Program-made: the position numbers and the translations under genes | The notes under the pieces: generated by a model | The model's database searches: none | Seen by the model: the letters and a program-made list of their open reading frames with translations, nothing else | What the model was told of the DNA's origin: nothing | Part shown: piece after piece, positions 1-64,000 of the stretch | Numbering within the stretch: the first letter of the stretch is position 1 | Layout of the letters: each line of letters opens with the position of its first letter | Assembly (NCBI GenBank): GCA_037176725.1 | Contig: JAZBRS010000020.1 | Coordinates: forward strand, 100,892,501-100,956,500 | Origin: Posidonia oceanica | Lineage: Eukaryota > Streptophyta > Magnoliopsida > Alismatales > Posidoniaceae | Reading direction: 5' to 3' | Length of the DNA stretch: 64,000 bases

Positions 1-640
1 TGTTAATTTCAAAATTGTATGCCAACTTACCATATGAGTTCAAAACTTGTCTTGATGCATGGCTATCTTTAAAAATTGCATTTTGAACCCTGCATTTTGT
101 AAAATTGCATTCAGGCCCTCCATTTCTCAAAAACTTCGCATAAAAGCCTCTAGCTTTTCAAAATCCTTGCATTCTGACCCCCATCTTTTCAAAATTGCAT
201 GTAAGTCCCCAATTTTCTGAAAAATCATCCCTAAGTCTTTTATTGCATTCTGCATGTATTGCATTCATGCATTCTTGCATCTGGCATCCCTTGCACACAC
301 TTAAGCATACTTAGCTCCCATTTACATGGGAGGACCCGTTTTGCACACCCTTAGGCCCCCTTTTACACTTTGATCCTATCTTCTCCCCTGTTCTGACCTT
401 CCGCCTTGAAGTCTGAATATCTTTTGATCGGACCGTCGGATCTTCGCAACCAAGATGCCTGAAAAACCCTGGTGGAGCGCACTTCAATACAGACCAAGTA
501 TTTCTCAGATCAGACTTCAGATCTTCGAGGTAAGTCCTCTTGAACTTCTGTAGAATCTTTTGCATATCATTCGCATTGCATGACTTTTAGAGGCTCTATT
601 TCGTCAACTTCTTGCACCGTTTTGCGTGCCGACTTTGTTT
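1..640 (+). mobile_element. Truncated Ogre/Tat-type LTR piece
   Basis: About 240 bases of loosely periodic text built on ttgcat and 'gaccc/ggccc' words are followed by 300-560, which is the inverted relative of 10,620-10,900. Both contain a 'gggaggaccc...ttgcacaccc' block, 'cttctcccctgttctg', and a closing GGTAAGTCC/GGTATGTCC word. This is therefore the 3' part of the long LTR that begins at 40,734 in the other repeat unit. It stops abruptly near 640, after a cgttttgcgtgcc word, where segment S begins; no LTR terminus is present there. The minus-strand ORF at 311-565 looks incidental. Confidence 0.7.
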
Positions 641-1995
641 CTTGTGACAGATTGTTATAACAACTCACAGAGCTCCTTTTCAAAAGAAAACTCCTCACAA
701 GCTACGACTTTTTCCTATATATATTTGGACCTTCAAAATGAGCAATATCAGATGGTGCCATGTGATCTTGGACTGCCAGTGTTGAAAAAGTAAAAATGCT
801 CCAAATATATGCATCGCCAATTAAGTGATGGCACGGCTGTTCACTTCCAATTCACTTCTTTCGAAAATGTTTCACCAAAGTGGTGTCAGGAACTGCATAT
901 ATCTGCAAATGTACTTCTTCAACCTGTAAGGTAAAGGGAAGATACTCTTATTTGTTGAAATAAGGTGTTCATTTATTCTTTTAGAATAAGAGGGTGTGAA
1001 ATCTACTTTCCTTAATAAACTTAAGTTGTTTAAATTGGTTGGAAAGATGTTGTTATTGAAATACGATAGCATTGGTCGCCATCAAACTTCTTTGTTATTT
1101 TTCAAATGTTTTCTTTTTTTTTTAAACGGTAATAGCATTAATATTAAAATCTTAACTATGAAACCACCACCATGTCAAAAAACAAACATAATGTATCATA
1201 CCCGGAAGGTATTAGAATGATACAGTAAATTGTAGATACTAATTTATCTTCAAAAAACAGAAAGTACTTAGAGTACTAAAATTAGGAAAATAAAGATTTC
1301 CTAAGATAAGAAGCAATACAGCACATTAGACTACGCTATCCTCTCATCTACTCCATTCGGCATTTGGATCAATAGGTAAGCCTTGATCTGAGATGGGAGT
1401 CAGAATCAAGTCAACAATAGTTTGACCCAATAAGCTATTATGAATGTCCTAGTTGACATTATTTTTCAAATGTTTTCTGCTAGATACAATTTGATAAGGG
1501 AGGAAAGTGAAGATCAATCTTTACTTGCATTAGAAATTATCAAAATATCTTACGTGCATTACTGTTTATAACCAATACGAGCACAAGTGGATCATATATG
1601 TACGTACATAGGTGTTCCATATCTATATATATTTTTGAAATAAGGATACAGAACTCATACGAATATAAAGAATACAATGTATGGATATTTAAAAGATGGA
1701 TATGTATAAAGAAAAATATATTTGTATAATGATAACGAATGATACCTTATCAACAAAGGATGATCATATATGTATAATATCATGAAAAAATGAAAAATAA
1801 TATCGATCATATCTGTATTTATATCTGCTTAAAACAATATAAATAATCCATTCCTTTTGAAAATTGTTATGAACAAAGATATGGAATTGTTATCTTGTAT
1901 CCGTTTACACTCCCAATGAAAAATCATGAGCCGTTTTAAGCGTAAAGAAATTACAATCTGGAACTGGAACCAAAAAAAAGGTCAACAGGGAATCT
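641..1995. repeat. Segment S, copy 1 (three copies in window)
   Basis: AT-rich non-coding sequence of about 1.35 kb, present also at 30,140-31,496 and 45,108-46,463. It starts at 'cttgtgacagatt' and ends at 'cagggaatcta'. No terminal inverted repeats, LTR ends or target duplications are visible at either edge. The short ORFs in it are not supported. Copies 1 and 2 differ at about three positions, while the 30-kb copy differs at about twenty-two. Its flanks here (LTR on the left, gag-like frame on the right) are both cut inside other elements, which points to a rearrangement rather than a clean insertion. Confidence 0.85.
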
Positions 1996-2525
1996 AGAAT
2001 CTTTCTCATTTCATCCAAATTGGTTATCCCGGCTGATGGGGTCGGGATGTGTGAATTGAATGATTGGTGGTTGGGCTTCTGATGAGGATAGCTGTTGCAG
2101 AAATACTGAGGTGCGACCGGCTCGTGTCGCGGAGGAGATGCTTGGTGGGGGTGGTAATTCGGCAGAGGCTGGTTGCCAGCTGTCGATGCTTGGAGAAGTG
2201 GTTCTTGGTGCCCGTAGGGCAAACCTACTCCTTCTCTATACTCGCCATGTGGCATTTGGTGTTGTTCTTGGATCAAGGGGTTTGCCCTTGATTTATAAGC
2301 TCCGTTGAGCACTGTGCCTTGCCCTTAGTGGTTCGTGTCCGGCGGTGGGTTGCCATACTGTTCCTGGTATAGTTCGTCAAGTGTGTGGTCCGCAACTGGC
2401 CTTCGTTGTCTTTCACTAAGGGAGGGTGGTTGCTGGAGGTTGTTCTGATACGGCCCCGTGGGGGCTGGTGCCTCTTCGTTCAAGAACTGATACATGGCTT
2501 TGTACTGGATTGAGTCTGGATCCAA
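1996..2525 (-). pseudogene. Gypsy-type gag-like 5' reading frame, truncated
   Basis: Reading on the minus strand from an ATG at 2,525, a frame of about 175 codons is interrupted by one in-frame TAA at 2,325-2,327. It then continues to 1,996, where it is cut by segment S. The product is rich in Pro, Gln, His and Asn and has no recognisable catalytic motif. Its position after a long leader with a minus-strand TATA box, and its composition, suit the amino-terminal part of a plant gypsy gag. No protease, reverse transcriptase or integrase follows. The same stop is present in copy 2, so the lesion predates the duplication. Assignment to gag is inference. Confidence 0.5.
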
Positions 2526-5190
2526 GGCTTCTCCAATGGTCGGATGGTAGATGTGACTGTAGGCTCTTCTCCTGATACACTTGTTGAGTCTAACCTCTCT
2601 CTTTCTGAATGTTCAGCTTCAAAAGTTTGGTTCAGCATCATAGCAGCTTTATGAATGAAATGATATTCGATTCAGGGTGTAAGACACCTCGAAATGCAGC
2701 GTTTAACGTTGGATGCGAGTAGTTCAGGTGTTCAACACCCTCAGCAGTATTCCTCTTTTTTTTCTGTCTTTCCTTTTCCTCACTATTTTTTTCCCCTCTC
2801 TCTTTTTTTTCTGTTTTCTTTTTTCTTTTCTTTTTTTTTCTCTTTTTCTTTGGTTTTCTTTTTTTTTCTTGTTATATAAAGGAAGGATTACAAGTAATTA
2901 TTAGAGAAAAGAAATTATAGAAGCTTTGCGATTTAGTACAGGTTCCTAAAAAGTAAAAACTGAATAAAAAACTGTAACCGTCCTGTTTATAGTTTTTCAA
3001 TGTTCTACCCTGCAATCAATCTACACAGAGAAGCTAAAAATAAACAGCCAATTAGAGAATGTGTTAGACGCGGTATCTCCTACGTCTAACGTTAAATGCA
3101 GCGATTTCGGCGTCTAACACCTTATTTCAGAGAATTACACAGAAACACTTTCAGACAGTGATTAAAGCTTTGATTTATGTTTTCGCTTTGTTATTAGTGT
3201 TTTAAACCTGCGTAGCTCTCAAGGTACCTTAAGGCTTGGGTATGGCTTTTTTTTCCAGGGATTTCTATGGATCCTCACAAAATGGGTAAAATTTTTCTTT
3301 TTTTTTCTTTGGTACTATCTCCTATCTCAACTCCTGAGGATGTTAGAAAAAGCCCGAATACACTTAGGTCCCTACCCCGTATAGGGTAGAGCCTAGCGTA
3401 CTCAGGATTGATCAGGTCCCTCGCGTATCAATCACAACAAACATAAACAAACCACCGAAGGGGGAGGAAGAATGCAAATCTAGACTTGGGGTTCTAACTT
3501 ACTTTCACATGGAGCAAGGGTAAGAAGAGTGCCCCTTGTGGAAGCAAGTGACAACACAAACACCTTCTTAAGTCCTTTGCAACAGGGGTGCTCAGGATTT
3601 AAGTGGTTATTTTGTGTAATCCAAGACAAGACTCAATCAAATTAGTTCCCTAAATAGGGCCATGCAAGTCATACAGAAAAATTCGATTTTTTTAATTTGA
3701 TTTTTTTTTTGCAAAGCACCCAAAAGGAAATGAGGTTCTTGTCCCTACGGCAAAGTCGATCACCTCACACCTCAACCTTTGGGCTAGTTATGAAAAGAAA
3801 ACAAAGAAAAATGTTAAAACAGCAAGGCTCCTGTTCAGTGGTCGTTAGACGCTGCTACTGGAGCGTCTAATGTTAAACGCTCCAGATCACATGTATAACG
3901 TACTGACAGAGTTTTTTACAGAAAATCAGTGGCTTTTATGAACCACCTCCACTCCCGAGAATCACAGAGAAAAAGGGAGGTGGTTTTAGTTATTTGGATG
4001 TGAAAAAAAACGAGAAGGGTCACGGTGCCTCAAGACACTACGAGGAATTTCATCGCTACCTTAAAACTTATGAAAGAAAACTAAAAACTAGAAATGAAGA
4101 TAACAAGGGAGAAGAAGAAGAAGAAATTACTCACCTTGCATGGGGGCACTTCTAGCTGTCCCACCATGATCGCCAATCTGTGGATACGGGGGTTTTGTTC
4201 GAGGAGAAGATGGGTTTGCTCTTCATTGGCCTTCTCGGAGTCCCCTTTTGCTTGTATCCGATTTCGACACTCCATGTGTATCGAAACCAGTGTGATCGCC
4301 ATTCTCGATTTACTTGCGCTGGCCCTCGAGACGCCTTGGGAGATGTGATGTGTGTTGCGGGTTCAACTACCTTGGGACAACGCCAGCGTTGCCCAAGGGT
4401 GCCCGTGCTTGGTGAGTCACTTCTTCTTCTTCTTTTCCTTGCAAAACAGATTTAGAGATGTGGATTAAATATAGTGTAGTAAGTGATCAAAGTTAAACAG
4501 AAAATGATATAAAAATAAACAAAGAAAAATACCTACTTGAGTGGTTTTATCTCCTGGTTGCAACTATGTATGAATGCCTAGCTACAACAATATATGAAAT
4601 GAAATGCGATTTGCAAAAATAAAAAGAAAATCCCTTTTGTTTATTTAAGAAATGCAATATGCCGTTGGCGTGGTTGGAGATGGAAGAAGACTCAAGCTCT
4701 CTCAAAACACTTTCTCAACATAATTTTTCTTAAGATTCTGGCTCAAAACTCTTTCAATTTTCTCTCAAAAATTCCTCTAAAATTTCCTCCTCCACTTAAA
4801 TTCGTTTCTTTTCTGGTCCCCTTGGCTGTGGGGGTACCCCTACTTTTATAGACGTAGGGGAGGAACAGATATAGATTAAATGGCCAAACCAGCAAACTTT
4901 CCAATTCAGAGGTGTTATAAGCTAGAATCCCAATGTATAACGTTATAAGCTGGAATCCCAGCGTATAACGTTATAAGTTGGAATTCCAGCGTACAACTGC
5001 CAGGATAAAGGAATATTCCCCTAATAAAGATTGATTAAGAGTCATTAAACCAGTTTTAATTGCCTTGACTGGTCAACAGACTCTAAAGAAGGTAAAAATA
5101 CGGATTTCGTATTTGGCCAAATAAGGAAAGTTTGTGTCTGACACAGGGCTTCAACGTTCGACGCTGGAAATCCAGTGTCTTATCCTATAG
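2526..5190 (-). mobile_element. Leader/LTR region of minus-strand gypsy-like element
   Basis: A non-coding stretch upstream (minus sense) of the gag-like frame. It holds a long pyrimidine tract (2,745-2,875) and a minus-strand TATA-like box in 'ctacttttatagacgtag' near 4,850. Short inverted or repeated words occur at 3,061-3,121 and 3,845-3,893 (gttagacgc with gcgtctaac), at 4,914-4,996 (three gttataag..gg units) and near 5,150. LTR ends and a primer-binding site were not pinned down. Several short ORFs here are not supported. The right edge abuts a copia fragment near 5,190. Confidence 0.45.
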
Positions 5191-7232
5191 AGTTACTCGA
5201 GATTTTTAGGGTGAAGCTGTTCACACAGCTGTTTATCTCATTAATCACATCTCCTTCTCTGTCATCTCTGGTATGTTACCATATGAGCGCTTGTTTTCTT
5301 ATGTCCCTAATTATAATGAATTACGCATCTTTGGTTTTACTTGTTTTGTTCTTCTTCCTAAAAGAAAACGTGACAAACTTGGGAAACACACGGCTCTTTG
5401 TGTTTTTCTAGGCTATGGTACCAAACGAAAGGGATATCGGTGCTTTGATCTAGAAACAAATCAACTTCATATCTCTCATCATGTCACCTTTTGGGAACAT
5501 ATTCGCTTTTCTTCTCTCTCTCAATCTCCACCTTTGATGCCTGTTCTTGATCCCTTTGATGAACCTAGTTGTGATACTCTAATGATAGAAATTCCTACAG
5601 CAACGTCGATCCCAGCTAGTTCAAAACACGACTGTGATCCTCCACCATGACGCAACCCGGAACGTACTCGCACTATTCCTTCCCGCTTTTAGGATTATTG
5701 CCTTCTTTCTAAACACTCATTTTAGGGACCCAGAACCTTTCGTGAGGCATCTTGTGACCCCTTGTGGCAACAGGCAATGCAAGAAGAATTACCAACTCTT
5801 CAAAGCACTCATACTTGGGACCTTGCAACACTTCCTCCTAACAAACCTCTTGTTGACTGCAAATGGATCTATAAAATCAATACCAAGGCTGATGGATCTA
5901 TTTAATGCTACAAGGCTCATCTTGTGGCTAAAGGCTTCACTCAGGAGTATGGCATTGACTACGACGAAACCTTTGCTTCTATTGTTCGTATGACTACTGT
6001 CCGCTCTCTCATTACTGTAGCTACTCTCAGACATTGTTCAGTACATTCAATGGATGTTAAGAATGCCATTTTAAATGGAGAATTACATGAGGAAGTTTAC
6101 ATGCAACCTCCCCCTGGACTTCCACATGAGCCTGGTCAGGTTTACCTTCTTTGAAAAGCTCTATATGGTCTTAAACAAGCTCCTCAATCTTGGTTTGAGA
6201 ATTTTTGTTCTATTATGATGGCCATTGGTTCTAGGCAAAGTCCATATGACTCTGCTCTGTTCATCCTCTCCTCACCGTGAGGTCTGGTTCTTCTTCTACT
6301 GTATGTTGATGATATGGTTATCACTGGCTCAGATATCGTCGGAATTAAGGAAACTCAACTTTGTCTACAGCGCAACTTCAAAATGAAGGACCTTGGACAC
6401 TTGCATTATTTGATTGGCAGTAAAATCCAATCTGATTCATCTGGCTATTCTCTCTCTCAAGCTACATATGCTTCAGACATAATCCATCGATCTGGTATTA
6501 GTGATGACATCATTGAGCTCACTCCTCTTCAACCCAACACCGATGTCTAACCTTTAGATGGTAGCCTCTTACCAAATCCCACTCTTTATAGAAAGCTAGT
6601 TGGTAGTTTGAATTACATCCCTATCACCCGCCCTGATATCAGTCACGCTGTGCATATTGTTAGCCAATTCAAGTCTGCTCTGTGAACAATCCACTTTGCC
6701 TCCATTCTTCACATTCTTCGATACCTGAAAGGCTCTATTAATCAAGGATTACACTTTTCCTCTACCTGTGATGTTGATTATGCGGGTGATAGTATTGATC
6801 GTTGTTCAACAATAGGTTGGGCTATTTTTCTTGGTGATTCTCTAATCTCTTGGAAAAGCAAAAAGCAAAAGGCTGTTTCACGCTCTTCAACTGAAGTTGA
6901 ATATCGTGCTTCAGCCCATACTATAGCTAAACTTATTTGGCTCTTGTCACTTCTTCAGGATATGGGGATTCATTACTATTACTGATAGTACTACACTCCT
7001 TTCTGATAGCAACAGCGCAATTCAGATAGCACACAATAATGTTTTTCACGAGCGGACAAAGTATAATGAGGTGGATTGTCTTGTTATTCGTGATCATGTG
7101 CAACGAAAGACAACCACCTTTAAGCATCTATCTTCCAAAGATCAAGTAGCCGATTTCTTCGCCAAGTTTCATCATTTGCCTCATTTCAAAATTCGCAAAT
7201 CCAAACTTCATATGCTTCCTGAAGCCTCTTGA
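5191..7232 (+). pseudogene. Copia A: decayed Ty1/copia pol (integrase end, RT, RNase H)
   Basis: Starting inside the integrase C-terminal region near 5,191, the frame carries the copia 'CVFLGY..KRKGYRCFD' block. It is followed by the reverse transcriptase (KWIYKI near 5,865; LVAKGFTQEYGIDYDETF; SMDVKNAILNGELHEEVYMQ; ALYGLKQAP; LLYVDDM near 6,300) and RNase H (SWKSKKQKAVSRSSTEVEYRA near 6,850) to a final stop at 7,230-7,232. In-frame stops and frame changes interrupt it at several places, for example after 'DGSI' near 5,905, after 'VYLL' near 6,154 and near 6,279. It is an inactive polyprotein remnant lacking gag, protease and the integrase core. The twin copy shares these breaks. Confidence 0.93.
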
Positions 7233-8098
7233 GTTTGAGGGTTGTGGGGGGACGGGGGGGTGGTTAAATTACTACCTGTCACCCTTAATAGGTACGATTA
7301 TGCTGTCATTAGCTTGCATCTATAATAGGAATCACTAGGCTGTATGATTTCATTCATTGTATATACTTTTCTATTATGTATGTATAGGGGTGAATCTCCC
7401 TTGTAATGAACACATAAAAGTATTACCTGCTTGTCCAAGAAAATCATGTAGATAGAAATAAGCAATCTAGAAAGCATAGAGGATTGGGTCCTCAAGCCCT
7501 TTTTTTTTTTTTTGAAATGGATTGGGACTTCTTGCTTGGATGCATGCATGTGTGTACGATAGTATGAGGCAGAATGCAGCATCATCAAATGGGAGACCTT
7601 TGACTGCCACATGGGAAAAGCAAAAGAAAAAAAGGTAGAAAGAAAGGAAGAGTGATGGTCAGAAACGATTGGTTCAGCCAAACAGCAAACGACCAATCTC
7701 ACGTAAGACTATTCCTTCATGAATGACGTAGCTACATTGACGTCATTGCCTCCCATAACCCTAACGTCAGCGAATTCCTTTTGGTCCATGCATGCTAGCT
7801 GTATTTTGTCAATGTTTCTCGCAGTGCCATTACAATACGTGGTACTGTTTGTTCCTTTTATTTAGAAAAGTCTGATGCTGCTGCTAAACCTACGTAGAAG
7901 ATAAGGGACATGAATGATTTTTATAAGAGCAGCCGCACATGTCAGTGAGTAATGTCCGATTACCACGACATGAAATGGGATCAAAGCCTAACCGAGCGAA
8001 GACCAACCCTTCACCGTAAATATATGGTTTTTATTTAAATATATGGTTGTGTGTATGAATTAATTTCAAAAATAACGGTATAACGTTGATAAATTCTA
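7233..8098 (+). mobile_element. Copia A polypurine tract and probable 3' LTR, then unassigned sequence
   Basis: Directly after the pol stop comes a G-rich purine run (7,236-7,260) and then tggttaaattactacc at 7,261, the expected place for a 3' LTR start. The right LTR end is not identified and no matching 5' LTR exists upstream, because the element is truncated at 5,191. From about 7,450 to 8,098 the sequence (a T run near 7,500, AT-rich text) shows no gene or repeat that I recognise. The minus ORF at 7,298-7,702 overlaps the LTR region and has no family features. Confidence 0.5.
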
Positions 8099-8431
8099 AT
8101 GCACTCCAGGTCAGACTTTGTTTGGAACTTGGTAAAGATATCTGATGATTTACTTCACAAATATGGTCTCTGGTTCAACTCCAGCCAAGGATTAAATGAG
8201 TGCAAGGCAACTGGATTTTGGCTTGCAGAGCCGACCTGGGAGGTGGAATATCTGGGTCATGTCATCTTACAAGAGGGAGTCTCAGTTAATCCAAGGAAGA
8301 TTTTGTGTGCTATGGAGTGGCCGAGGCCAACTACACCCAAGGCATTGAGGGGATTTCTAGGGTTAACTGGTTATCTGACAAGTACAATCAAACTCCAACA
8401 TAGGTCAATTAAACTCCGAAGGTGTGTTTAG
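8099..8431 (+). pseudogene. Gypsy reverse transcriptase fragment
   Basis: An open frame of 110 codons ends in the classic gypsy motif after the RT palm: YLGHV, then SVNPRKI, WPRP, and TPKALRGFLGLTGY. Only this C-terminal RT piece is recognisable; residues before 'EYLGHV' do not align convincingly. There is no RNase H after 'GLTGY', where the text changes. It is an isolated fragment between copia A and the long LTR. Copy 2 has an additional nonsense change (ggа to tga in the ACTGGATTT context), so only copy 1 stays open. Confidence 0.85.
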
Positions 8432-9364
8432 ACTCCTAAAACGTCAAGTTAAACACTAACGATGCCAGATCAAACCCTAGCAATGCTTGATCGAGGTTTA
8501 ACGGGGCTTGTTCGCACTCTGACTATTCGACAACATCCATCCAAAATTAAGCAACAACCTGTTCTAATAGACACACTACTGCTTCTACTGTTCTCAAAAC
8601 CTTTTAGATGTGCGGTCTATCCTCTTCTTCATCCCTATACAAAACTTTGTTTTACATCTCCTCGATGTGTCTTTCTGAATTTGTACCTTTACTCATATGG
8701 GATGCCATTGCTATCCTATTGCCTCTAAAGCATCATTTACTACCATGCCCAGGTACTTCTTCTGATATCATAACGGGCCTTGACATTCCCAGCCCATCTT
8801 CTTCAGAGCCCGACCCCTTAAACCCATCCGGAAATTCCCAATTCCCTGGTCGTCCAATTTCCCCACGCAATGAATTTATTGCCGTCGACCAAACACGTTC
8901 TATTAATTGAGATCAATACGAATGATCTGAAGTGCTTCGACACTACATTAAGCGTTTTACAGCCTATTAGATCTTCCCTAAAATGTTAAGGTCCGCTATC
9001 TATTTGGTTTTTCTTTGTTAAACAGAAAGAGAGAGAGAGAAAGGAGAGGTCTAATGTTAACTAATAGGATAAATCCCATTTAGTCACTTGTGATTTGATT
9101 ATGGTGTTTCAAGACTCGTTAGAGAGCCGACTTTATTATCTACTATTTTTGCATTCAATATTTTTGTTAGATACGTGCTGATTTTATTGTCTAATTCTTC
9201 CATAAGTCAATATTACCGTATAGTTGTTAAGTGCATTGCATGTTTATATTTATTGTCAGTAGCTAAACGAATCTGTACCTTGCTTTAGTTGTTGTCTTTA
9301 GAGAAGAGTTTGATGAACTGAATATTCATTGAATTAGTATGTGTAGTAATCCCAATCGGAATCA
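8432..9364 (+). other. Unassigned, possible copia-like remnant
   Basis: Frame-shifted words near 8,650-8,760 (CVFL, YSYG, then a Ser/Pro-rich stretch with PSSSEPDPLNPS) recall the end of a copia integrase and the linker before the RT. No frame holds for long and no catalytic motif survives. The 100-codon frame at 8,608-8,910 may be part of it. A short purine run at 9,027-9,050 and AT-rich text follow. Nothing else is supported. Confidence 0.3.
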
Positions 9365-10021
9365 GGCTTACTATTAGCGGCGATTTGATCCGAGGAAGAG
9401 GCTCAACTCGAAAACACTTAAAATCGAGGAGAAAAGAGGAAGATAAGACAAATCAGAGTCGCCACCAAGTCTATTAATGGAAGACGAGGAAAATCGGGGG
9501 AAATGCGTGGATTAACACGCAAAACCAAGCAAGAAATGCAAAACAAAGCAATGCAAAGGAAAACAAGTGCAAATGAATGCAAATGAGATGACTCATGCCT
9601 AGGATAAGGGCGATATGGTCATTGCGGGCCAAGAGAGGGCAAGGACTCCTGTTACGCGCAGGGAAGGTGTTAGGCACCCCCGACACGTCCGAGAATCGGT
9701 CTTTCTAGGCTTACGCTCGCATACACAGGAAAATGCAGATTTGAATGCCTATGTGCCTATGAATGCCTAAATGAATGCTCAAGGTGTGCTCTAAGTGGAA
9801 GGATGCAAAGCAAGGAAGTAAACGTGCTCTCTAAGTGCTCAGCTACGCTGTCTGTGTTCCGAACCAGGCGGAACCCAGCTCGTGAGAACTCCAGGCAGTA
9901 AGCATCACAGCCCTATATGCAAATGCAAGCGAAAAAGCAAAACAACGGTAAAACCATGCAATGCGATCGACATGCAAGGGAAAACGGCGTAAAACGCACA
10001 AAACAAGGCAAGAAGCAAGAA

Positions 10022-10190
10022 CGGCACGCAAAAACGGGCGAAAAGCAAGACGGCACGCAAAACGGTGCAAAAGAAAGAGAGCGGCATGCAAAACGATGCA
10101 AAAGAAGAGGCGAGCACGCAAAACGGCGCAAAAGCAAAGCAGGCACGCAAAACGGTGCCAAAACAAAGCAGGCACGTAAAACGGTGCCAA
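10022..10190. repeat. About 30-bp minisatellite inside the long LTR
   Basis: Six degenerate tandem units begin near 10,022, 10,050, 10,081, 10,112, 10,141 and 10,171. Each is built on ggcacgcaaaacggtgc followed by an aaaagcaaagca-like spacer. The array produces overlapping open frames on both strands (Lys/Arg-rich on plus, Cys/Phe-rich on minus), which explains several long but meaningless ORFs here. Confidence 0.85.
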
Positions 10191-10929
10191 AAGCGGCGAG
10201 ATAAAACTTCGGGAAAGCCATGCGAATGCAAATGCAAGAAGAAAGATTAGAAGGAGCAAAAGGAGGGGTAAAACGGCACGTGTGTGAGAACAGGCACCGT
10301 TCGGGGCCACACAGAGTAGGTGTGAAGACCTACCAGAGGGGAGAGTGAGCAAACGGAGGGATTACCACTTCTTTGTGACCGTTTCCCACTAAACCGCTCC
10401 ACGATCTATCTCGCATGCTGCCCAAAGCTCGCGATGCGATCGGATCGTGGAAAAGGGGGAAGGAAGTCGCATTAAGTAGTGAATCCAGGGAAAACACAAC
10501 ACAAAACACCCAAGAGTACGTGAAACGGGGATCTGAGTTGATAGACAGGAAGGAGAGGTCCTATTCTACATGCTCAAAGAGACGGAAAGCGAAAACAAAG
10601 CAAATTAAGCAAATGATATGCAAATGAATGCAATGCAGGGGTTCAGGAGGACATACCTGGAAATCTTGGAGCCTGATCTGAAATCCACTTGGTCCATGCT
10701 GAAGAACGCTTCGCCGCGGTCGTCTGGGTAGCTTGTTTGAGAAGATCCAACGGTCGGATTGGAAGATATCGCAACTTCAAGGCAGAGGGCCAGAACAGGG
10801 GAGAAGAACAGATCTAAGTGTTCAGGAGGTCCTAGGGGTGTGCAAAAGGGTCCTCCCAGGTGAAAGGGAGCTAAGGGGGCTTTAGTGTGTGCAAAAGATG
10901 CTAAATGCAAGACTATATGAATGTAAATG

Positions 10930-14900: not shown

Positions 14901-15257
14901 TCTAGGGTTTGAAGAGCTGCGTTTGAAGTTTTGGTTTGGTTTCAAGAAGGTTTTGGAGGGGTTTTAAGGTGTAGAAAAAGGGTAGTTTTACCTAGGCTTC
15001 TCTAGGATTTTTGGGAATGGTTTAGGTTTGAAAGTTTCTAAGTTCTTGGGTAGGTTTGATAAGTGGGTGTTGGTGGGTTTTCCTATGGATTTTGGTCAGA
15101 TTTTGAGCTTGGGAAGAGGGGTAAAGGCTTAGGTCAAGTTGGGCTTGTTTTGAAGGGTAAATAAGAGGGTTAGGGTTTGGTTTTAGGTTAGGGTTTGAGT
15201 CCAGCAATCACTAGGAGGACCCCAATCGATCCAGCCTGTCAAAATGGGGTGTCAACA

Positions 15258-20529: not shown

Positions 20530-20547
20530 CACTACTAGAAAAACAGG

Positions 20548-52569: not shown

Positions 52570-52902
52570 ATGCACTCCAGGTCAGACTTTGTTTGGAACT
52601 TGGTAAAGATATCTGATGATTTACTTCACAAATATGGTCTCTGGTTCAACTCCAGCCAAGGATTAAATGAGTGCAAGGCAACTTGATTTTGGCTTGCAGA
52701 GCCGACCTGGGAGGTGGAATATCTGGGTCATGTCACCTTACAAGAGGGAGTCTCAGTTAATCCAAGGAAGATTTTGTGTGCTATGGAGTGGCCGAGGCCA
52801 ACTACACCCAAGGCATTGAGGGGATTTCTAGGGTTAACTGGTTATCTGACAAGTACAATCAAACTCCAACATAGGTCAATTAAACTCCGAAGGTGTGTTT
52901 AG
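52570..52902 (+). pseudogene. Gypsy RT fragment, copy 2, with extra stop
   Basis: Twin of 8,099-8,431. A G-to-T change gives TGA near 52,685 ('caacttgattttgg'), so only the last 62 codons (YLGHV...GFLGLTGY) remain open. Confidence 0.85.
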
Positions 52903-53835
52903 ACTCCTAAAACGTCAAGTTAAACACTAACGATGCCAGATCAAACCCTAGCAATGCTTGATCGAGGTTTAACGGGGCTAGTTCGCACTCTGACTATTCG
53001 ACAACATCCATCCAAAATTAAGCAACAACCTGTTCTAATAGACACACTACTGCTTCTACTGTTCTCAAAACCTTTTAGATGTGCGGTCTATCCTCTTCTT
53101 CATCCCTATACAAAACTTTGTTTTACATCTCCTCGATGTGTCTTTCTGAATTTGTACCTTTACTCATATGGGATGCCATTGCCATCCTATTGCCTCTAAA
53201 GCATCATTTACTACCATGCCCAGGTACTTCTTCTGATATCATAACGGGCCTTGACATTCCCAGCCCATCTTCTTCAGAGCCCGACCCCTTAAACCCATCC
53301 GGAAATTCCCAATTCCCTGGTCGTCCAATTTCCCCACGCAATGAATTTATTGCCGTCGACCAAACACGTTCTATTAATTGAGATCAATACGAATGATCTG
53401 AAGTGCTTCGACACTACATTAAGCGTTTTACAGCCTATTAGATCTTCCCTAAAATGTTAAGGTCCGCTATCTATTTGGTTTTTCTTTGTTAAACAGAAAG
53501 AGAGAGAGAGAAAGGAGAGGTCTAATGTTAACTAATAGGATAAATCCCATTTAGTCACTTGTGATTTGATTATGGTGTTTCAAGACTCGTTAGAGAGCCG
53601 ACTTTATTATCTACTATTTTTGCATTCAATATTTTTGTTAGATATGTGCTGATTTTATTGTCTAATTCTTCCATAAGTCAATATTACCGTATAGTTGTTA
53701 AGTGCATTGCATGTTTATATTTATTGTCAGTAGCTAAACGAATCTGTACCTTGCTTTAGTTGTTGTCTTTAGAGAAGAGTTTGATGAACTGAATATTCAT
53801 TGAATTAGTATGTGTAGTAATCCCAATCGGAATCA
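52903..53835. other. Unassigned, possible copia-like remnant, copy 2
   Basis: Twin of 8,432-9,364; nothing further recognised. Confidence 0.3.
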
Positions 53836-56800
53836 GGCTTACTATTAGCGGCGATTTGATCCGAGGAAGAGGCTCAACTCGAAAACACTTAAAATCGAGG
53901 AGAAAAGAGGAAGATAAGACAAATCAGAGTCGCCACCAAGTCTATTAACGGAAGACGAGGAAAACCGGGGGAAATGCGTGGATTAACACGCAAAACCAAG
54001 CAAGAAATGCAAAACAAAGCAATGCAAAGGAAAACAAGTGCAAATGAATGCAAATGAGATGACTCATGCCTAGGATAAGGGCGATATGGTCATTGCGGGC
54101 CAAGAGAGGGCAAGGACTCCTGTTACGTGCGGGGAAGGTGTTAGGCACCCCCGACACGTCCGAGAATCGGTCTTTCTAGGCTTACGCTCGCATACACAGG
54201 AAAATGCAGATTTGAATGCCTATGTGCCTATGAATGCCTAAATGAATGCTCAAGGTGTGCTCTAAGTGGAAGGATGCAAAGCAAGGAAGTAAACGTGCTC
54301 TCTAAGTGCTCAGCTACGCTGTCTGTGTTCCGAACCAGGCGGAACCCAGCTCGTGAGAACTCCAGGCAGTAAGCATCACAACCCTATATGCAAATGCAAG
54401 CGAAAAAGCAAAACAACGGCAAAACCATGCAATGCGATCGACATGCAAGGGAAAACGGCGTAAAACGCACAAAACAAGGCAAGAAGCAAGAACGGCACGC
54501 AAAAACGGGCGAAAAGCAAGACGGCACGCAAAACGGTGCAAAAGAAGGAGAGCGGCATGCAAAACGATGCAAAAGAAGAGGCGAGCATGCAAAACGGCGC
54601 AAAAGCAAAGCAGGCACGCAAAACGGTGCCAAAACAAAGCAGGCACGCAAAACGGTGCCAAAAGCGGCGAGATAAAACTTCGGGAAAGCCATGCGAATGC
54701 AAATGCAAGAAGAAAGATTAGAAGGAGCAAAAGGAGGGGTAAAACGGCACGTGTGTGAGAACAGGCACCGTTCGGGGCCACACAGAGTAGGTGTGAAGAC
54801 CTACCAGAGGGGAGAGTGAGCAAACGGAGGGATTACCACTTCTTTGTGACCGTTTCCCACTAAACTGCTCCACGATCTATCTCGCATGCTGCCCAAAGCT
54901 CGCGATGCGATCGGATCGTGGAAAAGGGGGAAGGAAGTCGCATTAAGTAGTGAATCCAGGGAAAACACAACACAAAACACCCAAGAGTACGTGAAACGGG
55001 GATCTGAGTTGATAGACAGGAAGGGGAGGTCCTATTCTACATGCTCAAAGAGACGGAAAGCGAAAACAAAGCAAATTATGCAAATGATATGCAAATGAAT
55101 GCAATGCAGGGGTTCAGGAGGACATACCTGGAAATCCTGGAGCCTGATCTGAAATCCACTTGGTCCATGCTGAAGAACGCTTCGCCGCGGTCGTCTGGGT
55201 AGCTTGTTTGAGAAGATCCAACGGCCGGATTGGAAGATATCGCAACTTCAAGGCAGAGGACCAGAACAGGGGAGAAGAACAGATCTAAGTGTTCAGGAGG
55301 TCCTAGGGGTGTGCAAAAGGGTCCTCCCAGGTGAAAGGGAGCTAAGGGGGCTTTAGTGTGTGCAAAAGATGCTAAATGCAAGACTATATGAATGCAAATG
55401 CATGCAGGGAGCAAAAAAAGACAAGAAGGGAGATTTTTAGAAAAACTGGGATTCAAATGCTATTTTTTTAAAAAGGTGGGGGTTTTAATGCAAAAGTCTA
55501 AAAAAACATGGGGCTTTCAGGCAGGTTTTGAAAACAGGAGGAGGCAGAGGGCAATTTTGCAAAAGATAGGGCTTTTAGAATGCAACTTTGAAAGAGGGTA
55601 TGCATCAGGGGAGTTTTGAAAGCAATGGCAAATCAGAGTGCAATTTTGGAAACATCAAGGGCTAAAATGCAATTTTTCCAGAAAACAGGGTTCTGGGGAG
55701 TCCGGGAATGCAAGTGGAGGGTCTACATGCAATTTTTGCAATCTTGGGAGCTAAAATGCAAATTTGAGGGCAAAATAGGCATTTTACATGATTTTAAAGG
55801 GATGCAAAGGACCTATGTGTCATTTTGAAATCATGCAGGGTCAAAAATGCAATTTAATAAGCAAAATATGCACTGAAAACACTGACTGGACTGACAGGCA
55901 ATTTTCACAAAATGTAGGGTTGAAATGCATTGCAATAAGCTAAATATGCATGCAGAAGACTACTGTGCATTTAAAAAGAACCTATATGCAAAAATCAGAA
56001 AACAGAGGGAAGAAAATGCAATGCAACAAGCAAAAATGGAAAATAAAACCTAAGTTCTACAGTGCAGAGGACTAGAATGCAAAAAATGAGAAAAAACAGG
56101 AACACAGAATGCAATATTATAAGGCAAAATTAACACATTAAAATTAAATACACTACTGCAGGACTCAGATGCAAAAATGAAAAACAGAAGGGCTAAACTT
56201 AAACTTTTTATAACTAGAAAGCACAATAAATGGACTAAACTGCAAATACTAAAAACCATAAACAGATCATGCAATTTAATATGATTTCCATTCAAAATAA
56301 CAGCAGATTAAATGAAATAAGGACTGGAATGTAAAATGACAGAAACTAAGACCAGATATGCAATATTTACCATAAAACTAAGCTAATGCAAAAATAAATG
56401 CACAGTAGACGGCCGACGGCCGTGGGCACTGTAGCAGCAAGCTGCCAGCGCCCGCGACCGCCGGCACAGGGATGCTGGAGGCGTGCAGACCGGCGGGAGA
56501 GCTGCTCCTGCTCCGGGCGGAGGTCGGGCGACGATCGGCGGAGGTCGACGCGTCCTGGAACGGACTAGAGCGGTCGCCGGAGTTCCACAGAGTTTCAGAA
56601 GGTTCGTCCGGTCGATCGACGCAGCGACGCTGCGTTCTGAGGGCCGGAGAACACTCCTGAGGTTCGTGCAGACCTGAGGGGATTGCTGGAGGCGCGTTCC
56701 GCTAGCCGGAGCGACGTGAAGACCGGGAGAGCTCGCCGAAGAAGACGATCTGACCGGAGCTGGTAATCGGAGCAGGAGGGCCGGAATCCTATTTCTAAGG

Positions 56801-59730
56801 GGCGGACAAGCAGCACGGGAAGAAAAGAAGACTAAGGGAGTAAAGAATCACCTGAGCCCGCGTCTGAGTCGTCCTCCCGACGTCGATGGCTTCAACAGTC
56901 GTCGGCGGAGGTCGTCCGGTCGCTGCGGGCGTCGTCAGCCGCTCGCGAAGGCTGGAGCTGCTTCAGAACGTTCCTCCGGTGCTTCCCAGACGATCGGATG
57001 GAAGCTTCAGAGCTCAAGCGGCGATTCGGCACTTTGTGGGTTCAGACAGATGGCCGGAGGTCGGAGGGGTTGTTCGCTGCACGTCGGACTGGATGGGACC
57101 CTCCGGGAGGTTGCTGGAGGTCCGGTGAGTGGTTCTGGATGATTGGATTATGGTTCTGGAGAGTGTAGAGGGAGATTGAAGGCTGGTCTGATTTCTGGTC
57201 CGAAGGAGGGGTAAGTATTTGTGGTGAAGATTTCGGTCTGTGATGGAGGAGAAGGCTGAAGGCTAGGTGTTTCGGGAAGGTGGAGTTCAGGCGAATATTT
57301 GGGGAAGGTTTGGGAAGATGCGGTGGACTGTGGTGAAGGTAATTTCAGGAGGGATTGGAGTTGGCTTGCAGTTAGCTTCAGGTGGTGTTCAGAGGATGTT
57401 TCAGTGGTTTCGTGTGGTGGAAAGGCAGGGAAATGGTGAGGGAAGAATGCAGGGTTGCTGGGTGAGTTTGGGGGATCAATTGGAGAGGGATGAAGGCTGG
57501 GAAAGGGTTTGTTTTACTGGAAAATGAAGAAGGTGGTTTGCTGTGGATTTCAGGGGGAAAAGGAGAAGAACTTGGGTGGAGGATGCTGGGGAATTGGAGG
57601 GCTCTCTCTGGGATGCCAAGAACTCCCTCAGACACTCTCTTCTTGCTCTCTCTTCTCTGGAATTGGATGGTGAAGAGGAAGAAGGACGAATGGTCTCTCA
57701 GGTGGAGGAAGTTGGATTCTGGAATTGGTCTCTGGTTCGCTCTCTCAGGTCTGCTCTCTCTAGGTTTGGCTGCTGGTGATCTGCTGGTTGCTAACCGATG
57801 GGAATTGAAGGATGAACGGGAGGTTTTTATCTGGAGGAGGCTGGCTGCTGGCGCGCTGGAAGTTTTTGAATTCAACCGACGACACTGCAGCAGACGCGAG
57901 ACGGCGAGGCGACCGGCATTCAATGCCTCTCGGAAAAGGTGCTGAGATAGAGGAGAGGCGGCGAGCTGCTGTAGGTTGATAAGATAGAGGCTTGAATTTC
58001 AAACGATGGAGGGAGCACTGCAGCTGGCCGCCCGCGGGAGAAAACGGTGGAAAGCGCAGAAGGCTGAAGGAAGAAGAAGGAGGAGAAGGCCAGGCTACGG
58101 GCCGAAAAAAGAAAAAGGAAATAGAGAAGAAAGGGCGAGACGGGCCGATGGGCCCAGTAAGGAAGAAAAAAGAAAGAAAATGAGGAAGGAAGAAAGAAAG
58201 AAAGAGAGGAAAAAGAAAGCAAATAAAATTAGGAAAAAATAAATTAAAAATAAGTAAAAATATTAGGGTGTTGTGTTGTGAGTTAGGATTTTAATTAGAT
58301 TTTTTAACGACTGTTTTGGGTTAATTAGTGTGTTTTGGGCTTGATTAGGGTTTTAGGGTTTTGTTTTGTTCTTAATTTGTTTTCCATTTGATTAAGTGTT
58401 TGTTAAATCTTTTAAATTGTTTTGTTAATTGTGTTTTTCTTGTTAAGTATTTTAGGATGTTAATTAGGATTTTTAGGATTTATTTTTAGGTTAATTAGGA
58501 TGTGTTTTGGGCTTTCAGTTTTAGTCTTTTAGGTTTTTTTTTTTCCTTAAGTCTTTTGAATTAGGTTTTTGATTTTTATTTGTTGATTTTTCTTGATGTT
58601 TTTTGATTGGGTTTCTCTGGTTTGATGGAGTGTTTTTTAAGTCTTTTTAATGTGTTTTTTATTTTCTTTTCAAATAAGTTCTTAGGTTGTTTTTTCTTAG
58701 GTTTGCTAAGTTAGGCTTTTTTCTTTCATTAATTACTTATCTTAGTGTTTTAATTGTTTTACTTCTTTTTAGGGTTTGTTTTTTAATTCTTTTGATAGGG
58801 TTTTCACTTTTGGTGGGTTTTGATTTTATTTTAGTTTTTTCCTTGATTTTTCAGTATTTTCTTTTAGTTTGTTTTGCATTTTTTATTTGCATGCTTGATT
58901 TCCTTTTTAGCTTGATTTAGTTAGGTCCAAGTTTTTTAATTGTTTGTTTAACGTTTTTTAATTATTTTTCTTAGAGTTCTGATTTGTTTCTCTTATGTTT
59001 TAGAGTTTTACAGATTTTTAGGGGTTTTTATGGATTTTAGCAAAAGAAAGAAAAGGAAAAGAGAAGGAGGAAGGAAATGGGAAAAGGGGGAAATAAAAGG
59101 GAAAGAGATGAGTTGGAAGGAAATGATTTTTTTAAAATTCAGGGAAAATGTTAAAAATAAAGTAAAAATAGGAATAAGATAGAGAAGGGATAGAGGCACA
59201 AAGAGGGCCCATAGCCAAGCAAGAAAAGGAGCAAGAGGGTGATGAAATGAGAGATGATAATTAGGAGAGAGAGAGGAGAGAGAAAATGATAATCCCAGAT
59301 AGAGAAAAGGATAATTAGGGCAAATGGAAGGCTTAGAGGTCTTGGAATGGGATGAAACTTGGGGAGTGGGTAGTCTAGGGTTTGAAGAGCTGGGTTTGAA
59401 GTTTTGGTTTGGTTTCAAGAAGGTTTTGGAGGGGTTTTAAGGTGTAGAAAAAGGGTAGTTTTACCTAGGCTTCTCTAGGGTTTTTGGGAATGGTTTAGGT
59501 TTGAAAGTTTCTAAGTTCTTGGGTAGGTTTGATAAGTGGGTGTTGGTGGGTTTTCCTATGGATTTTGGTCAGGTTTTGAGCTTGGGAAGAGGGGTAAAGG
59601 CTTAGGTCAAGTTGGGCTTGTTTTGAAGGGTAAAGAAGAGGGTTAGGGTTTGGTTTTAGGTTAGGGTTTGAGTCTAGCAATCACTAGGAGGGCCCCAATC
59701 GATCCAGCCTGTCAAAATGGGGTGTCAACA
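53836..59730 (-). mobile_element. Long Ogre/Tat-type LTR, copy 2
   Basis: Twin of 9,365-15,257; the minus-strand TGTTGACACC start is at 59,730. The 30-bp minisatellite is at about 54,493-54,661 with the same number of units. Together with 40,734-45,107 it forms a large divergent inverted pair across the copy boundary. Confidence 0.72.
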
Positions 59731-60231
59731 GTATGTTTACATCTAGAGTATCTTTTGGATTGGCATAGAGAAATATTGGATCAAAGTTGTATAAGAATCC
59801 TCTAAGCATATGTAATAATTTGATAGTGATATTGGTGAGATTTCTAAGAGTTAAGGAAGTTGTGTGTGCAAATGGAATTTAAATTAAAAATAAAATATGG
59901 TATTTTACAGTTAGCCTTATGTGAGGTTAATAATTTTAGAGGAAAACCTAAAATGTTGAGGATGGTATTCTACAAGAACTTCAAATATAATAACCATTAT
60001 ATAATAATAAACCACTATAGACACCTAGATGTTCATCTATTTTAGCTTGCAAATTGTTTTGGAATTGTATGATTAAGATGTTCTTATTTCTTGTACGATT
60101 GTAAATGTGATATTGAATATTGAAATATAAGAGAAGCATTTGATATTCTCTTGTGGGAATGCTTTTTTTTATGTTATATTGTGTATGTATAAGAAATAGA
60201 CACATGTATTAATTGATGTGTACACGAGCTA

Positions 60232-60538
60232 TGTTAAAGATGAACAAATAATTGAAAATAGTATTGCAACAGATGAATTTGCCACTATAGCATAGAACAG
60301 CATATATAACAACAAATATATTTGCCGCTATAGCGGCATATATAGCAGCAAATACATATGTCAGCAGTGTTAAACTTATACCGACAAATAGAAAATTTGC
60401 CGGTGTAACCTTTAGCAATACCATGATAGACTACAAATAGTTTTTACCGCTAATATGTTACTATAGATCTTTAGTGGCAAATCTAACACCTATAGTGGCA
60501 AATTTGAAATGTCATTAATTGCATATTTTGTTGTTGTG
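60232..60538. mobile_element. CACTA-like terminus, copy 2
   Basis: Twin of 15,760-16,044 with one extra subterminal unit (60,481-60,501). The minus-strand end CACAACAACAAAA is at 60,538. Confidence 0.5.
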
Positions 60539-61877
60539 ATTCCTATAAGAAATCCAACAACCAGTATTGATCCAAGCACCTATCTGTGGATGTGGATTTG
60601 AAGGTGTTTATGAAGATGACAATGCTTCCACAACGTTATCAACTTTGTTTGTGATCGCCACATATCAATGGGCGGACAAGGCACTTAGGGAAATGATGTT
60701 GATGTGGATACTCGACTCACTGGATCGACGGCAGGATGTCGTCCAGTGGCTTCTTCGTGTTACGTGAGCGTTTTCCTTTTCCTTCAAAACAAATAAAAAT
60801 AAAAGATCTACATAAGTTTGTGTGTACTAAATGATAATAAGAAAAGACAGAGAATAATATGAACAAATGAATCTAATACTAACCGGAGGTTGTTCCCCAC
60901 ATACATATGTTATGGGTCATATGTTAAGGAATGCAATAATGAAATGAAAAAGATTAGAAGAAGATACTCCCTTCACCCTCGTGCTGTATGCGGTGGAGTG
61001 AGGAAGTGGAGGCACGGTTGGAGCTCCGGCTAGGCTCGAGATCTCTGGGATCTAGGGTTTCTCTAGATTGAAGGTGGAGGCTAGGGTTTCTCTCTCTCTC
61101 TAAAGGTGGCCTCCTTAAACCCTAAAATTGGCTCCTCCCGTGCACTGACTCACGGGACCTATTTATAGGTTCATAGGACACAGGTGGCTCAACCCTAGGA
61201 AGTTTCTAGAAGAAAACTAATTTTTAGGGTTAGTCGCCGCATAGGGGGGCGATTGGGACATATATATCTCGAAAAGATAGAGAAAATCCGGAAGACCAGG
61301 TCAATCAGAGTCCACGTCAGCTAGTCGCCGCATATAGTGGCACCTAGCTGCTGCATTATTCTAGGCAACTAAAATATTTGTTTCCAATTTTTAGGAGATT
61401 CTAAGGGATTGGCTTCTGATTTTTAGGGATTAGATTAGCACATTAAAACGTGTTAAAAATCAAGATATTTATTGTGAAGCCACCTAGGATTTTCTAGATT
61501 GTTCTTTGATTGTTTTATTTATGATATATGTGTTATACCATATATTAATTGCTAGAAAATCACATAAATATCAATAATTTATGGAAAAATGTTATAATAG
61601 CTTATAAAATTTCCGTATATTATATTAATGCCCAGGATATTGATATTAAGCTGGAGAGAGAGAAATGGTGCTAGTCGCCTCTCACACAGGCGCCTACACA
61701 GTCCAATCGCCCCTCTGAAAGGCGTCTGGCTGTGTCGCTACTCTGGGAGGCAACTAGCTAAGTCTTTTGCATTTTTAACCCTGTCTTTTAAGTTTGATCC
61801 AAAAAACTCGATAAAAGCCCAGAAAACTTCAGAGATCTCATGAAATCATAAAAACATCTTCTTTAACTCAAATCTGC
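60539..61877 (-). mobile_element. Gypsy-like LTR/leader remnant, copy 2
   Basis: Twin of 16,045-17,399, with one rather than two copies of the 10-base gaagtttcta unit. Confidence 0.45.
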
Positions 61878-64000
61878 CATGGATTTGAGTGGGATAAAGT
61901 GTGCTCAAGGTACTCGGACTTGCCACGAGTCTGAGTGCATTAGCTATGCCACAGCTAACAACCTTAAGTCAAGTAAAATCAAGTCTTGTTTTTAAGCAAA
62001 ACATGAAAACTCTTGAAAATATGTTATTAAGCCTTAGTTATGTGATCTGGATGCCTCAGAAGTTCCTGTCCTCTATGAACTCTGGGAAATGCCAAAATGG
62101 AATATCTACACTATCAAGCAATCAAAGTTAGAAATGAGCAATACAATGGTCAAATCCTAGGTTTGCAAACATTCTAAAGATGATCAGCGAGTCAATTCAT
62201 TGAAATTAGACACCAAATGGACTGAAATTATAGACCAGCATGGTTCTTCGTTGAAGATTGATATTATAGTGTGTTTGATCCAAATTTGAGCAATTGAAAA
62301 CAAAATGAAGATATCTAACAATAGTTTTCAAATTTTGAAGATGTTCAGGTCAAGGCAACATGACGATGCATCAACTTAGGTGGAGTTGAGGTGGAGGACT
62401 TTTTAGTGGATTCATGAAGATGCTGGTCCCATAACATGATTTGTTTCGTATCTCTGTAATAGACAATGAAATAAATAATGCAAATAGCATTTCTGATTAT
62501 TCTTTGTACTTATTGTCTGATTGTGATTTATGGCATGCTAGATTAGTTCATCTTAGAAAATAAAAAATGGAACAAATGGTAAAATTGGACCTTCTCCAAA
62601 ATATTCATAAGATGGAATTAACCCCATGTCAACATTGCTTAGTTGGAAAAATGACTAAGAAACCATTTGGTGTTGGACATATGGAAAATGAATTATTAGC
62701 CTTGATACATTCAGATGTATGTGGTCTACTTAGTGTGAAAACTTATAATAATAAGGAATATTTTGTAACATTCATAGATGATTATTTTAGATATGCATAT
62801 GTTTATTTAATCTCACGTAAAACAGAAGTGTTAAGTTGCTTTAGGAAATATAAAGCAGAAGTGGAAAAGTAACTTGGAAGAAGCATTAAAGTATTAAGAT
62901 CTAATAGAGGTGGGGAATACAATTCAAAGAAATTTGAATCATATTGTCAATAGTATGGAATAAAGAAGCATATTACTATGTCATATACGCCACAACAAAA
63001 TGGTGTGGCAGAACGGAAAAACAGAACTCTAATGAATTCTGTTAGATGCATGCTAGCACATTCATGCCTCCCAAAGGAATTTTGGGGAGAGGCATTACTC
63101 ACAGCAAATTACACTTTGAATAGAATACCTACCAAATTTGTCACAGGAATCCCTTATGAGTTGTCTACAATCACTTGATCCAGTAGTGAAGCCTCTTTGT
63201 GGTTGTACAAGAGATTGGGATTTCGAATTCCACAGACATCAAATAAAAGAAAAAACAAAAAAAATTGCTTAAAAAAACCACTTATGAGTTGTGGAATGGA
63301 AGAAAACCTAATATCAATCATCTAAGGAAATGTGATTCAATAGCTCATGTACTCATTCCAAGTCAACTCAGGGACAAATTAGATTTTAGAACATTAAAGT
63401 GCAGATTTATAGGATATTGTGATAAATTATCAGGATATAGATTTTTCCATAAGGAAAAAGGAATTATTGAGTATAGAGATGTTACATTTCTAGAAAATCT
63501 AAAGGAAGAAGAGCATACTCAAGATAAAGATGAACCATTATCAATAATTGGAGTTGATTACTTTAACGGTGTTCAAGGAAATGATTTAGAAAATGAGGAT
63601 CAACCAAACATAGAAATACAAATGAACCCATGGAAATAGTGGGGAATAGCCAAAATAACCAGTATGATCAATCAAATATGGAAAATATTGATGAGCTCGT
63701 AAATGACCCACCTGATGCTCCTAGAAATAAAAGAATAAGAACTCAACCCTCATGGATGAATGATTACCATTTGTATTCCTGTGAGACATCATGTTTCTTG
63801 ACAGATATAAATCAGGAAAATCACATGGAACCCATGACATATAATGATGTGATTAAATCACATGAAAAAGATTTGTGGCTTGAAGCCATGAATGATGAAA
63901 TTGATTCCATGAAAAGGAATATTGTTTGGAAATTGTGTGATTTACATAAGGAAAGAAAGGCTATAGGATGCAAATGGGTATTCAAGAAGAAGCTGAGAGT
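61878..64000 (+). pseudogene. Copia B pol, copy 2, cut by window end
   Basis: Twin of 17,400-19,523: the degraded upstream part, the integrase (with the same Asp-to-Asn change in LRSNRGGEY near 62,900) and the beginning of the RT (CKWVFKKKLRV at the window end). It carries the same stops and the SINE. Confidence 0.92.
63165..63280 (+). mobile_element. SINE-like insertion in copia B, copy 2
   Basis: 116 bp between cttatgagttgt at 63,153-63,164 and 63,281-63,292. Same B-box-like word (atttcgaattcc; one base differs from copy 1) and a shorter A tail. The insertion therefore predates the 44-kb duplication. Confidence 0.8.

What the first reader, a model, noticed from the sequence alone, without database searches (positions are those of the whole stretch)
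1..64000. A 19.5-kb+ near-identical direct repeat with a 44.47-kb period
The two blocks share every nested insertion, stop codon and junction, differing by scattered substitutions and slippage-type indels. A true tandem segmental duplication would carry a second transporter beyond the window. The alternative is two haplotypes of one locus laid end to end by the assembler, which allele-like divergence would also produce.
Basis: seen in the sequence. Interest (0 to 1): 0.75.

Follow-up and report, generated by a model that had tools for sequence, protein, structure and literature searches.

The report
Nine-unit tandem array with transporter gene
The repeat in this plant DNA window is real and is only a slice of a 373,000-base row of nine near-identical blocks of 39 to 44.5 kb, each carrying one amino-acid-transporter-like gene, so it is not two versions of one place glued together by mistake.

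Summary
In detail: window 1-19523 and 44467-64000 are 99.1% identical. The window is part of a head-to-tail array of nine units over C19:100849738-101222711 (373 kb). Left units (U0-U4) repeat at about 44.5 kb, right units (U5-U8, only sampled) at about 39.0 kb; a 5.9-kb element insertion accounts for the difference. A transporter (LHT-like) exon occurs once per unit, nine copies at 99.5-100%. The two-haplotype reading is refuted: nine copies, private differences in each of five units compared, mosaic units, no near-identical match elsewhere. Position 44467 is a window edge, not a junction. The real junction is a 5.7-kb linker (40734-46464) of a truncated retroelement and a CACTA fragment, found between units and absent at both outer edges. 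Eight gene copies share an exon-2 lesion; in the rightmost all five exon blocks are open. Best mechanism: one filler-bearing tandem duplication, then unequal crossing-over. Read depth is untested. New member of a known kind.

The parts
1..44466 (+). Unit U1 of the array (phase numbering of all units starts here)
   Evidence: U1-U2 alignment and array offsets
44467..64000 (+). Start of unit U2 (runs on to window coordinate 88938)
1997..40733 (.). Core segment C (38.7 kb) of U1. The left breakpoint lies inside a gag-like ORF that is uninterrupted at the left edge of the array; the right breakpoint is where U8 runs into the outer right flank
   Evidence: edges; ORF across the left edge (gag by eye)
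40734..46464 (.). Linker between the cores of U1 and U2: retroelement 5' fragment 40735 to about 45111 plus CACTA fragment 45101-46464. The right part of the preceding linker is window 1-1996
34882..37480 (-). LHT-like amino acid transporter gene. Exon blocks 37480-37141, about 37032-36937, 36172-35746, 35621-35492, 35379-34882. Exon-2 start and splice acceptor damaged in this copy
   Evidence: Pfam Aa_trans PF01490 in 2 of 3 ORFs tested; tblastn with palm LHT8-like P0004; homologues
9342..15257 (-). 5.9-kb TG...CA element with 5-bp target-site duplication GTATG/GTTTG; absent at the same site in U8; its absence from U5-U7 is inferred from unit length
   Evidence: empty site L050; unit spacing
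20530..32230 (+). 11.7-kb CACTA-type element (ends CACTACTAGAAA, 3-bp TSD TGT) nested in a Copia element; contains an LTR pair 21767-23041/27300-28561 and the stretch 30133-31495 that matches the linker fragment
   Evidence: dispersed copies
17420..32900 (+). Decayed Copia element split by the CACTA insertion (pol pieces 18.1-20.5 kb, RNase H end 32280-32645); outer limits approximate
   Evidence: RVT_2 in 19120-19614, SH3_retrovirus in 18701-19159; other pieces read by eye, no Pfam hit for 32280-32645

Best explanation
A genuine tandem segmental array in an unnamed flowering plant: C(LC)8, that is nine cores C of about 33-38.7 kb joined by eight linkers L of about 5.7 kb. Shown in the assembly: number, order, spacing, edges, linker make-up, shared and private variants, mosaic units. 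Inferred: (1) a 38.7-kb segment carrying one LHT gene was duplicated once, and the break was sealed with filler (5' 4.4 kb of a retroelement plus 1.36 kb of a CACTA element, the latter probably copied from the locus itself), as in microhomology or template-switch repair; (2) the long homologous units then misaligned and expanded by unequal crossing-over and conversion, which keeps U0-U4 within 0.3-1% while the outermost right end stays mostly 2-8% different; (3) a 5.9-kb element inserted in one unit and spread to the five left units; (4) an exon-2 lesion is carried by eight gene copies, while in the rightmost all exon blocks are open. No function of the extra copies is shown; most look like passengers.
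For: Flanks fetched contiguously (no N): -39307..111288 aligns with 5180..155791 at 99.40% over 150,716 columns, offset 44,487, and again at offsets 88,958, 133,429 and 177,943. Samples and the LHT exon search give nine evenly spaced copies. The 1.36-kb sequence occurs 9 times in cores and 8 times in linkers, strictly alternating. Private sites: U0 108, U1 67, U2 25, U3 40, U4 223. Mosaic: U2-U3 differ 0.07-0.37% per 3-kb bin over phase 3-30 kb but 1.3-1.6% over 39-44 kb, where U3-U4 fall to about 0.6%. U8 against U1: at most 1 difference per 250 bp over phase 34.75-36.75 kb, then mostly 2-8% to the array end. The outer left edge lies inside an unbroken ORF. U8 shows the empty insertion site. 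In 600 bp of the 1.36-kb sequence the U8 core differs from five linker copies by 2-5 sites and from six other cores by 7-8.
Against: No reads, so depth and spanning reads are untested; copy number in the assembly could be wrong. Only U0-U4 were read in full; U5-U8 rest on samples (L021-L023, L041-L045, L050-L054, L056-L058) and search hits. The filler step is inferred from junction make-up; junction microhomology is short or imperfect. The retroelement fragment begins exactly at an element end, which random filler would not require. A TE-driven origin is not excluded. The diverged end of U8 could come from a divergent haplotype rather than be the founder end.
Confidence: 0.88

Rival explanations
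1. Two haplotypes of one locus laid end to end by the assembler (false heterotype duplication).
For: Window divergence of 0.63% with transitions enriched at CG and CHG sites (25 CG, 25 CHG, 42 CHH of 92) is what alleles would show too. False duplications on one scaffold are documented (passages of PMC9516828).
Against: Nine units, not two; each of the five units compared has private sites; units are mosaics; no N in the 264 kb read contiguously; no near-identical exon match on other contigs among 17 matches.
Confidence: 0.02
2. A real but shorter array in the plant, inflated by assembly (some units are alleles or repeated graph paths).
For: Neighbouring units are 99.2-99.7% identical over U0-U4, and two unit lengths (44.5 against 39.0 kb) could partly reflect two haplotypes woven together; read depth untested.
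Against: Private sites in all five compared units and the regular alternation of 9 cores with 8 linkers.
Confidence: 0.08
3. Array founded by recombination between two copies of a flanking repeat, or by transposase acting on ends of different elements, instead of filler repair.
For: The linker begins exactly at the TG end of a retroelement. Kochia EPSPS arrays have a mobile element at each junction (PMC6808082, passages). Reversed-ends transposition makes tandem duplications in maize (PMC3744419, search listing and start of abstract only).
Against: No linker copy at either outer edge, unlike the flanking-repeat model. The CACTA fragment is internal: the 3 of 16 dispersed copies examined run past both its ends, so no CACTA end appears to have taken part.
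Confidence: 0.25

Closest known systems
Soybean Rhg1 (31-kb segment, up to 10 tandem copies, includes an amino acid transporter gene)
   Same: Tens-of-kb unit, about ten head-to-tail copies, an amino-acid-transporter gene in the unit (PMC4544587, passages)
   Different: Rhg1 units carry three genes with a resistance phenotype; here one LHT-type gene was found, damaged in eight of nine copies, with no known trait
Kochia EPSPS tandem array
   Same: Units of similar size at one locus, foreign DNA at each junction, several unit lengths, proposed growth by unequal crossing-over (PMC6808082, passages)
   Different: There the mobile element lies also at both outer borders; here the linker is only between units and is a patch of two truncated elements
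Macrosatellites such as human D4Z4
   Same: Large tandem repeat arrays (PMC3018141, search listing and start of abstract only; head-to-tail layout recalled)
   Different: Different host; here the unit is a TE-rich genic segment with few copies and clear original edges
LHT-type amino acid transporters (AAAP family, Pfam Aa_trans)
   Same: Aa_trans in two exon ORFs; many of the best homologues are named lysine histidine transporter-like 8; identity 49-63% in the 120 listed
   Different: Shared exon-2 lesion in U0-U7

Membership tests
Tandem segmental duplication array | More than one adjacent head-to-tail copy of a long segment in one chromosome | tested here: met
   Nine units, same orientation, 373 kb in the assembly; U5-U8 by samples and search hits
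Tandem segmental duplication array | A junction sequence absent from the single-copy edges | tested here: met
   Linker between units; both outer edges lack it
Tandem segmental duplication array | Concerted evolution or unequal exchange between units | tested here: met
   U3 and U8 mosaics
Tandem segmental duplication array | Read depth in proportion to copy number | not testable with these tools
   No reads available
False heterotype duplication | Two allelic copies, most often with a gap between them | tested here: not met
   Nine copies; no N in 264 kb
False heterotype duplication | Half read depth | not testable with these tools
   No reads available
CACTA transposon (20530-32230) | CACTA-type terminal inverted repeats and 3-bp target-site duplication | tested here: met
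   CACTACTAG at 20530, CTAGTAGTG ending at 32230, TGT on both sides; the class definition is recalled
CACTA transposon (20530-32230) | Transposase domain | not tested
   No transposase ORF was sought
LHT amino acid transporter | Aa_trans domain with full open frame | tested here: inconclusive
   Domain met. Frame broken at exon 2 in U0-U7; all five exon blocks open in U8 by tblastn; splice sites judged by eye, expression unknown

The most novel reading that the evidence does not exclude
The locus is a nested amplification hot spot for LHT-type transporters: beside the nine-unit array, six 75% relatives of the same exon with equal or nearly equal scores lie at 231-299 kb spacing just to its left (C19 99.34-100.71 Mb), so two arrays of very different period may be growing side by side over about 1.9 Mb, with conversion moving a damaged exon through the smaller one towards its last open copy.
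Probability: 0.3. Interest if true: 0.6.

Novelty: new member of a known kind. Interest (0 to 1): 0.45.

Why it matters
It shows that a 64-kb window can hide a 373-kb array and that allele-like divergence alone does not mean an assembly error. The array preserves unusually readable steps: original edges, a filler-type junction, an element insertion shared by five units, a sharp exchange point in the last unit, and a gene lesion in eight copies while one copy looks open. That makes the origin and homogenisation of large plant tandem arrays testable at one locus.

Tried and rejected
Rejected: two-haplotype reading. Rejected: 44467 as junction. Rejected: the 1.36-kb repeat as a transposable element of its own; the three dispersed copies examined (of 16) continue past both ends as in the core. 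Partly supported: that the linker copied it from the locus's own CACTA. Linker copies score 1547-1570 bits against the core query and dispersed copies at most 1541, and the U8 core is nearer to linkers (2-5 of 600) than to other cores (7-8 of 600); but the reverse search did not complete, and conversion could give the same picture. Not adopted: coding selection as reason for low exon variation (2 of 1491 exon columns variable against 627 of 40,571 elsewhere in U0-U4, Fisher p 8.5e-8), because genic DNA may simply mutate less and most copies look broken. Led nowhere: Rfam (0 hits); ARAGORN (0); host species (listed homologues at most 63% identical); Pfam on ten further ORFs (one SH3_retrovirus hit and one weak hit below cut-off); variation along U1/U2 (slight excess variance, simulated p 0.016, 0.10 and 0.022 by bin size); self-comparison of 23 sparse or flank loci for a second array (three pairs, no period seen); whole-unit MAFFT (timed out; replaced by anchored chunks); a protein search of the whole genome for more distant LHT copies (not completed). 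Paper searches (lysine histidine transporter with tandem arrays; macrosatellites in plants) showed no such locus among the 8 and 3 papers listed; this is no proof that none is in print.
Full report
What was claimed and what is there. The window holds a direct repeat, 1-19523 against 44467-64000, at 99.09% over 19,557 columns. A second alignment counts 122 substitutions, 92 of them transitions, and 21 indel events, the longest 21 bp. Transitions fall at 2.7% of CG, 2.2% of CHG and 0.7% of CHH sites, and the C or G is in copy 1 in 47 and in copy 2 in 45 of the 92, as expected of methylated plant DNA and not of sequencing error. The claim that every stop codon is shared is too strong: 69 of 101 ORFs of 60 aa or more keep both ends.

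The apparent junction is a window edge. A diverged, inverted relative of the element at 40733-45041 lies at 10609-15258; its alignment runs collinearly through 44467 (10609-11407 to 45041-44244; 67-82% identity in bins of up to 100 bp across the edge). So the copies extend beyond the window on both sides.

The genome settles the main question. The genome search answered: the window is C19:100892501-100956500 of an assembly with 2,962,952,704 bases in 80 contigs; C19 has 221,103,953 bases. I fetched 80 kb to the left and 120 kb to the right. The 264 kb contain no N, and -39307..111288 (window coordinates) aligns with 5180..155791 at 99.40% over 150,716 columns with offset 44,487; further alignments have offsets 88,958, 133,429 and 177,943. 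Sparse 4-kb samples showed unit sequence at 200, 250 and 300 kb; the ten samples from 350 kb to 2 Mb and the seven left samples showed none of the array, only element relatives at 500 kb (86%) and -147 kb (up to 97%). Samples of 0.6 kb placed the right edge at 330211, unit phase 40733. The left edge is at -42762, phase 1996.

Count of units. A 426-bp LHT exon has 17 matches in the genome: nine at 100% as printed (seven with the full score, two slightly lower) at C19 100883774 to 101217699, six of 75% further left on C19, one short one on C19 and one weak one on C29. The nine are spaced 44471, 44472, 44483, 44520, 39007, 38949, 39005 and 39018. The sequence of window 30400-31300 has 40 scored matches (of 95 candidates, so a lower bound): nine in cores and eight in linkers, strictly alternating, 16 full-length copies elsewhere at 97-98%, and seven partial ones. 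This is the pattern C(LC)8.

Units differ and exchange. In about 42 kb aligned for U0-U4, pairs differ by 0.33-0.99%; ungapped two-letter sites private to one unit number 108 (U0), 67 (U1), 25 (U2), 40 (U3) and 223 (U4). U2 and U3 are nearly the same in phase 3-30 kb (0.07-0.37% per 3-kb bin) yet differ 1.3-1.6% in 39-44 kb, where U3 instead resembles U4 (about 0.6%). This is the mark of crossing-over or conversion between units. U8 has at most 1 difference per 250 bp from U1 over phase 34.75-36.75 kb and then mostly 2-8% up to the array end, with two lower bins (0.4 and 1.2%) at exon 1 and just upstream; further left its samples are 98.7-99.5% identical to U1.

Junction anatomy. At the left edge the core starts inside a gag-like ORF (222 aa) that runs unbroken into the flank (recognised by eye, not scanned against Pfam). 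In the inner units that ORF is cut at phase 1996 and joined to the linker. At the right edge U8 runs on into other sequence without a linker. The linker consists of the first 4.4 kb of a retroelement whose longer relative, 81% identical, lies at C19:100742501 onward (L035 plus L049), then 1.36 kb that is an internal piece of a CACTA family: three dispersed copies examined continue past both its ends just as the core copy does. In 600 bp the U8 core is nearer to the five linker copies compared (2-5 differences) than to the six other cores compared (7-8), which fits a copy made from the locus itself. A patch of two truncated elements, found between the copies and not at the edges, is best read as filler laid down when the first duplication was sealed; that step is inference.

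Later history. U0-U4 carry a 5.9-kb TG...CA element at phase 9342-15257 with a target-site duplication GTATG/GTTTG (read in U1); U8 has the empty site, and U5-U7 are shorter by about the same amount. Length differences of 258, 98 and 64 bp also sort the units, though not into exactly the same groups (with samples): the 258 bp are in U0, U5 and U8, the other two in U4 and, where sampled, in U5 or U6.

The gene. Two of three exon ORFs tested give Aa_trans in Pfam, and many of the best homologues are lysine histidine transporter-like 8 proteins of flowering plants, at most 63% identical. In U0-U4 and U5-U7 the exon-2 start with its splice acceptor is replaced by a short copy of the exon-1 end, which breaks the frame. 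In U8 all five exon blocks are open. Exons vary little: 2 of 1491 columns in U0-U4 against 627 of 40,571 elsewhere; U8 and U1 differ at 4 of 1491. Whether any copy is expressed is unknown.

Other anatomy in the unit. A CACTA-type element (20530-32230, TSD TGT) sits in a Copia element and itself contains an LTR pair at 95%.

Comparison. False duplications are known to place alleles on one scaffold (PMC9516828, passages), but that model gives two copies. Large plant arrays are known: Rhg1 with up to 10 copies of a 31-kb segment that includes an amino acid transporter (PMC4544587, passages) and EPSPS in Kochia with a mobile element at each junction and at both borders (PMC6808082, passages). This locus belongs to that kind; the linker confined to the inside and the damaged exon in eight of nine copies set it apart.

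Limits.

Noticed in passing
G000:C19:99335364-100708017 (window coordinates about -1,557,000 to -184,000): Six relatives of the LHT exon, 75% identical to it and of equal or nearly equal score, spaced 231, 266, 299, 299 and 277 kb on the same strand. The copy at 100707594 (L055) has open exon blocks by tblastn. May be a second, longer-period amplification.
   Followed up: partly
L025 377-3999 and L026 377-4000 (C19 about 101.29 and 101.34 Mb): An inverted pair of at least 3.6 kb at 94.5% identity, about 50 kb apart, to the right of the array; cut by the sample ends.
   Followed up: no
window 12000-14000 and 42000-44000: GC-rich stretch (49-52%) with strong GC skew and long overlapping open frames; the one ORF tested (12680-13528) has no Pfam match. 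Part of the TG...CA element and its inverted relative.
   Followed up: no
window 24627-25559 (-): 311-aa open frame inside the nested LTR element, without a Pfam match.
   Followed up: no
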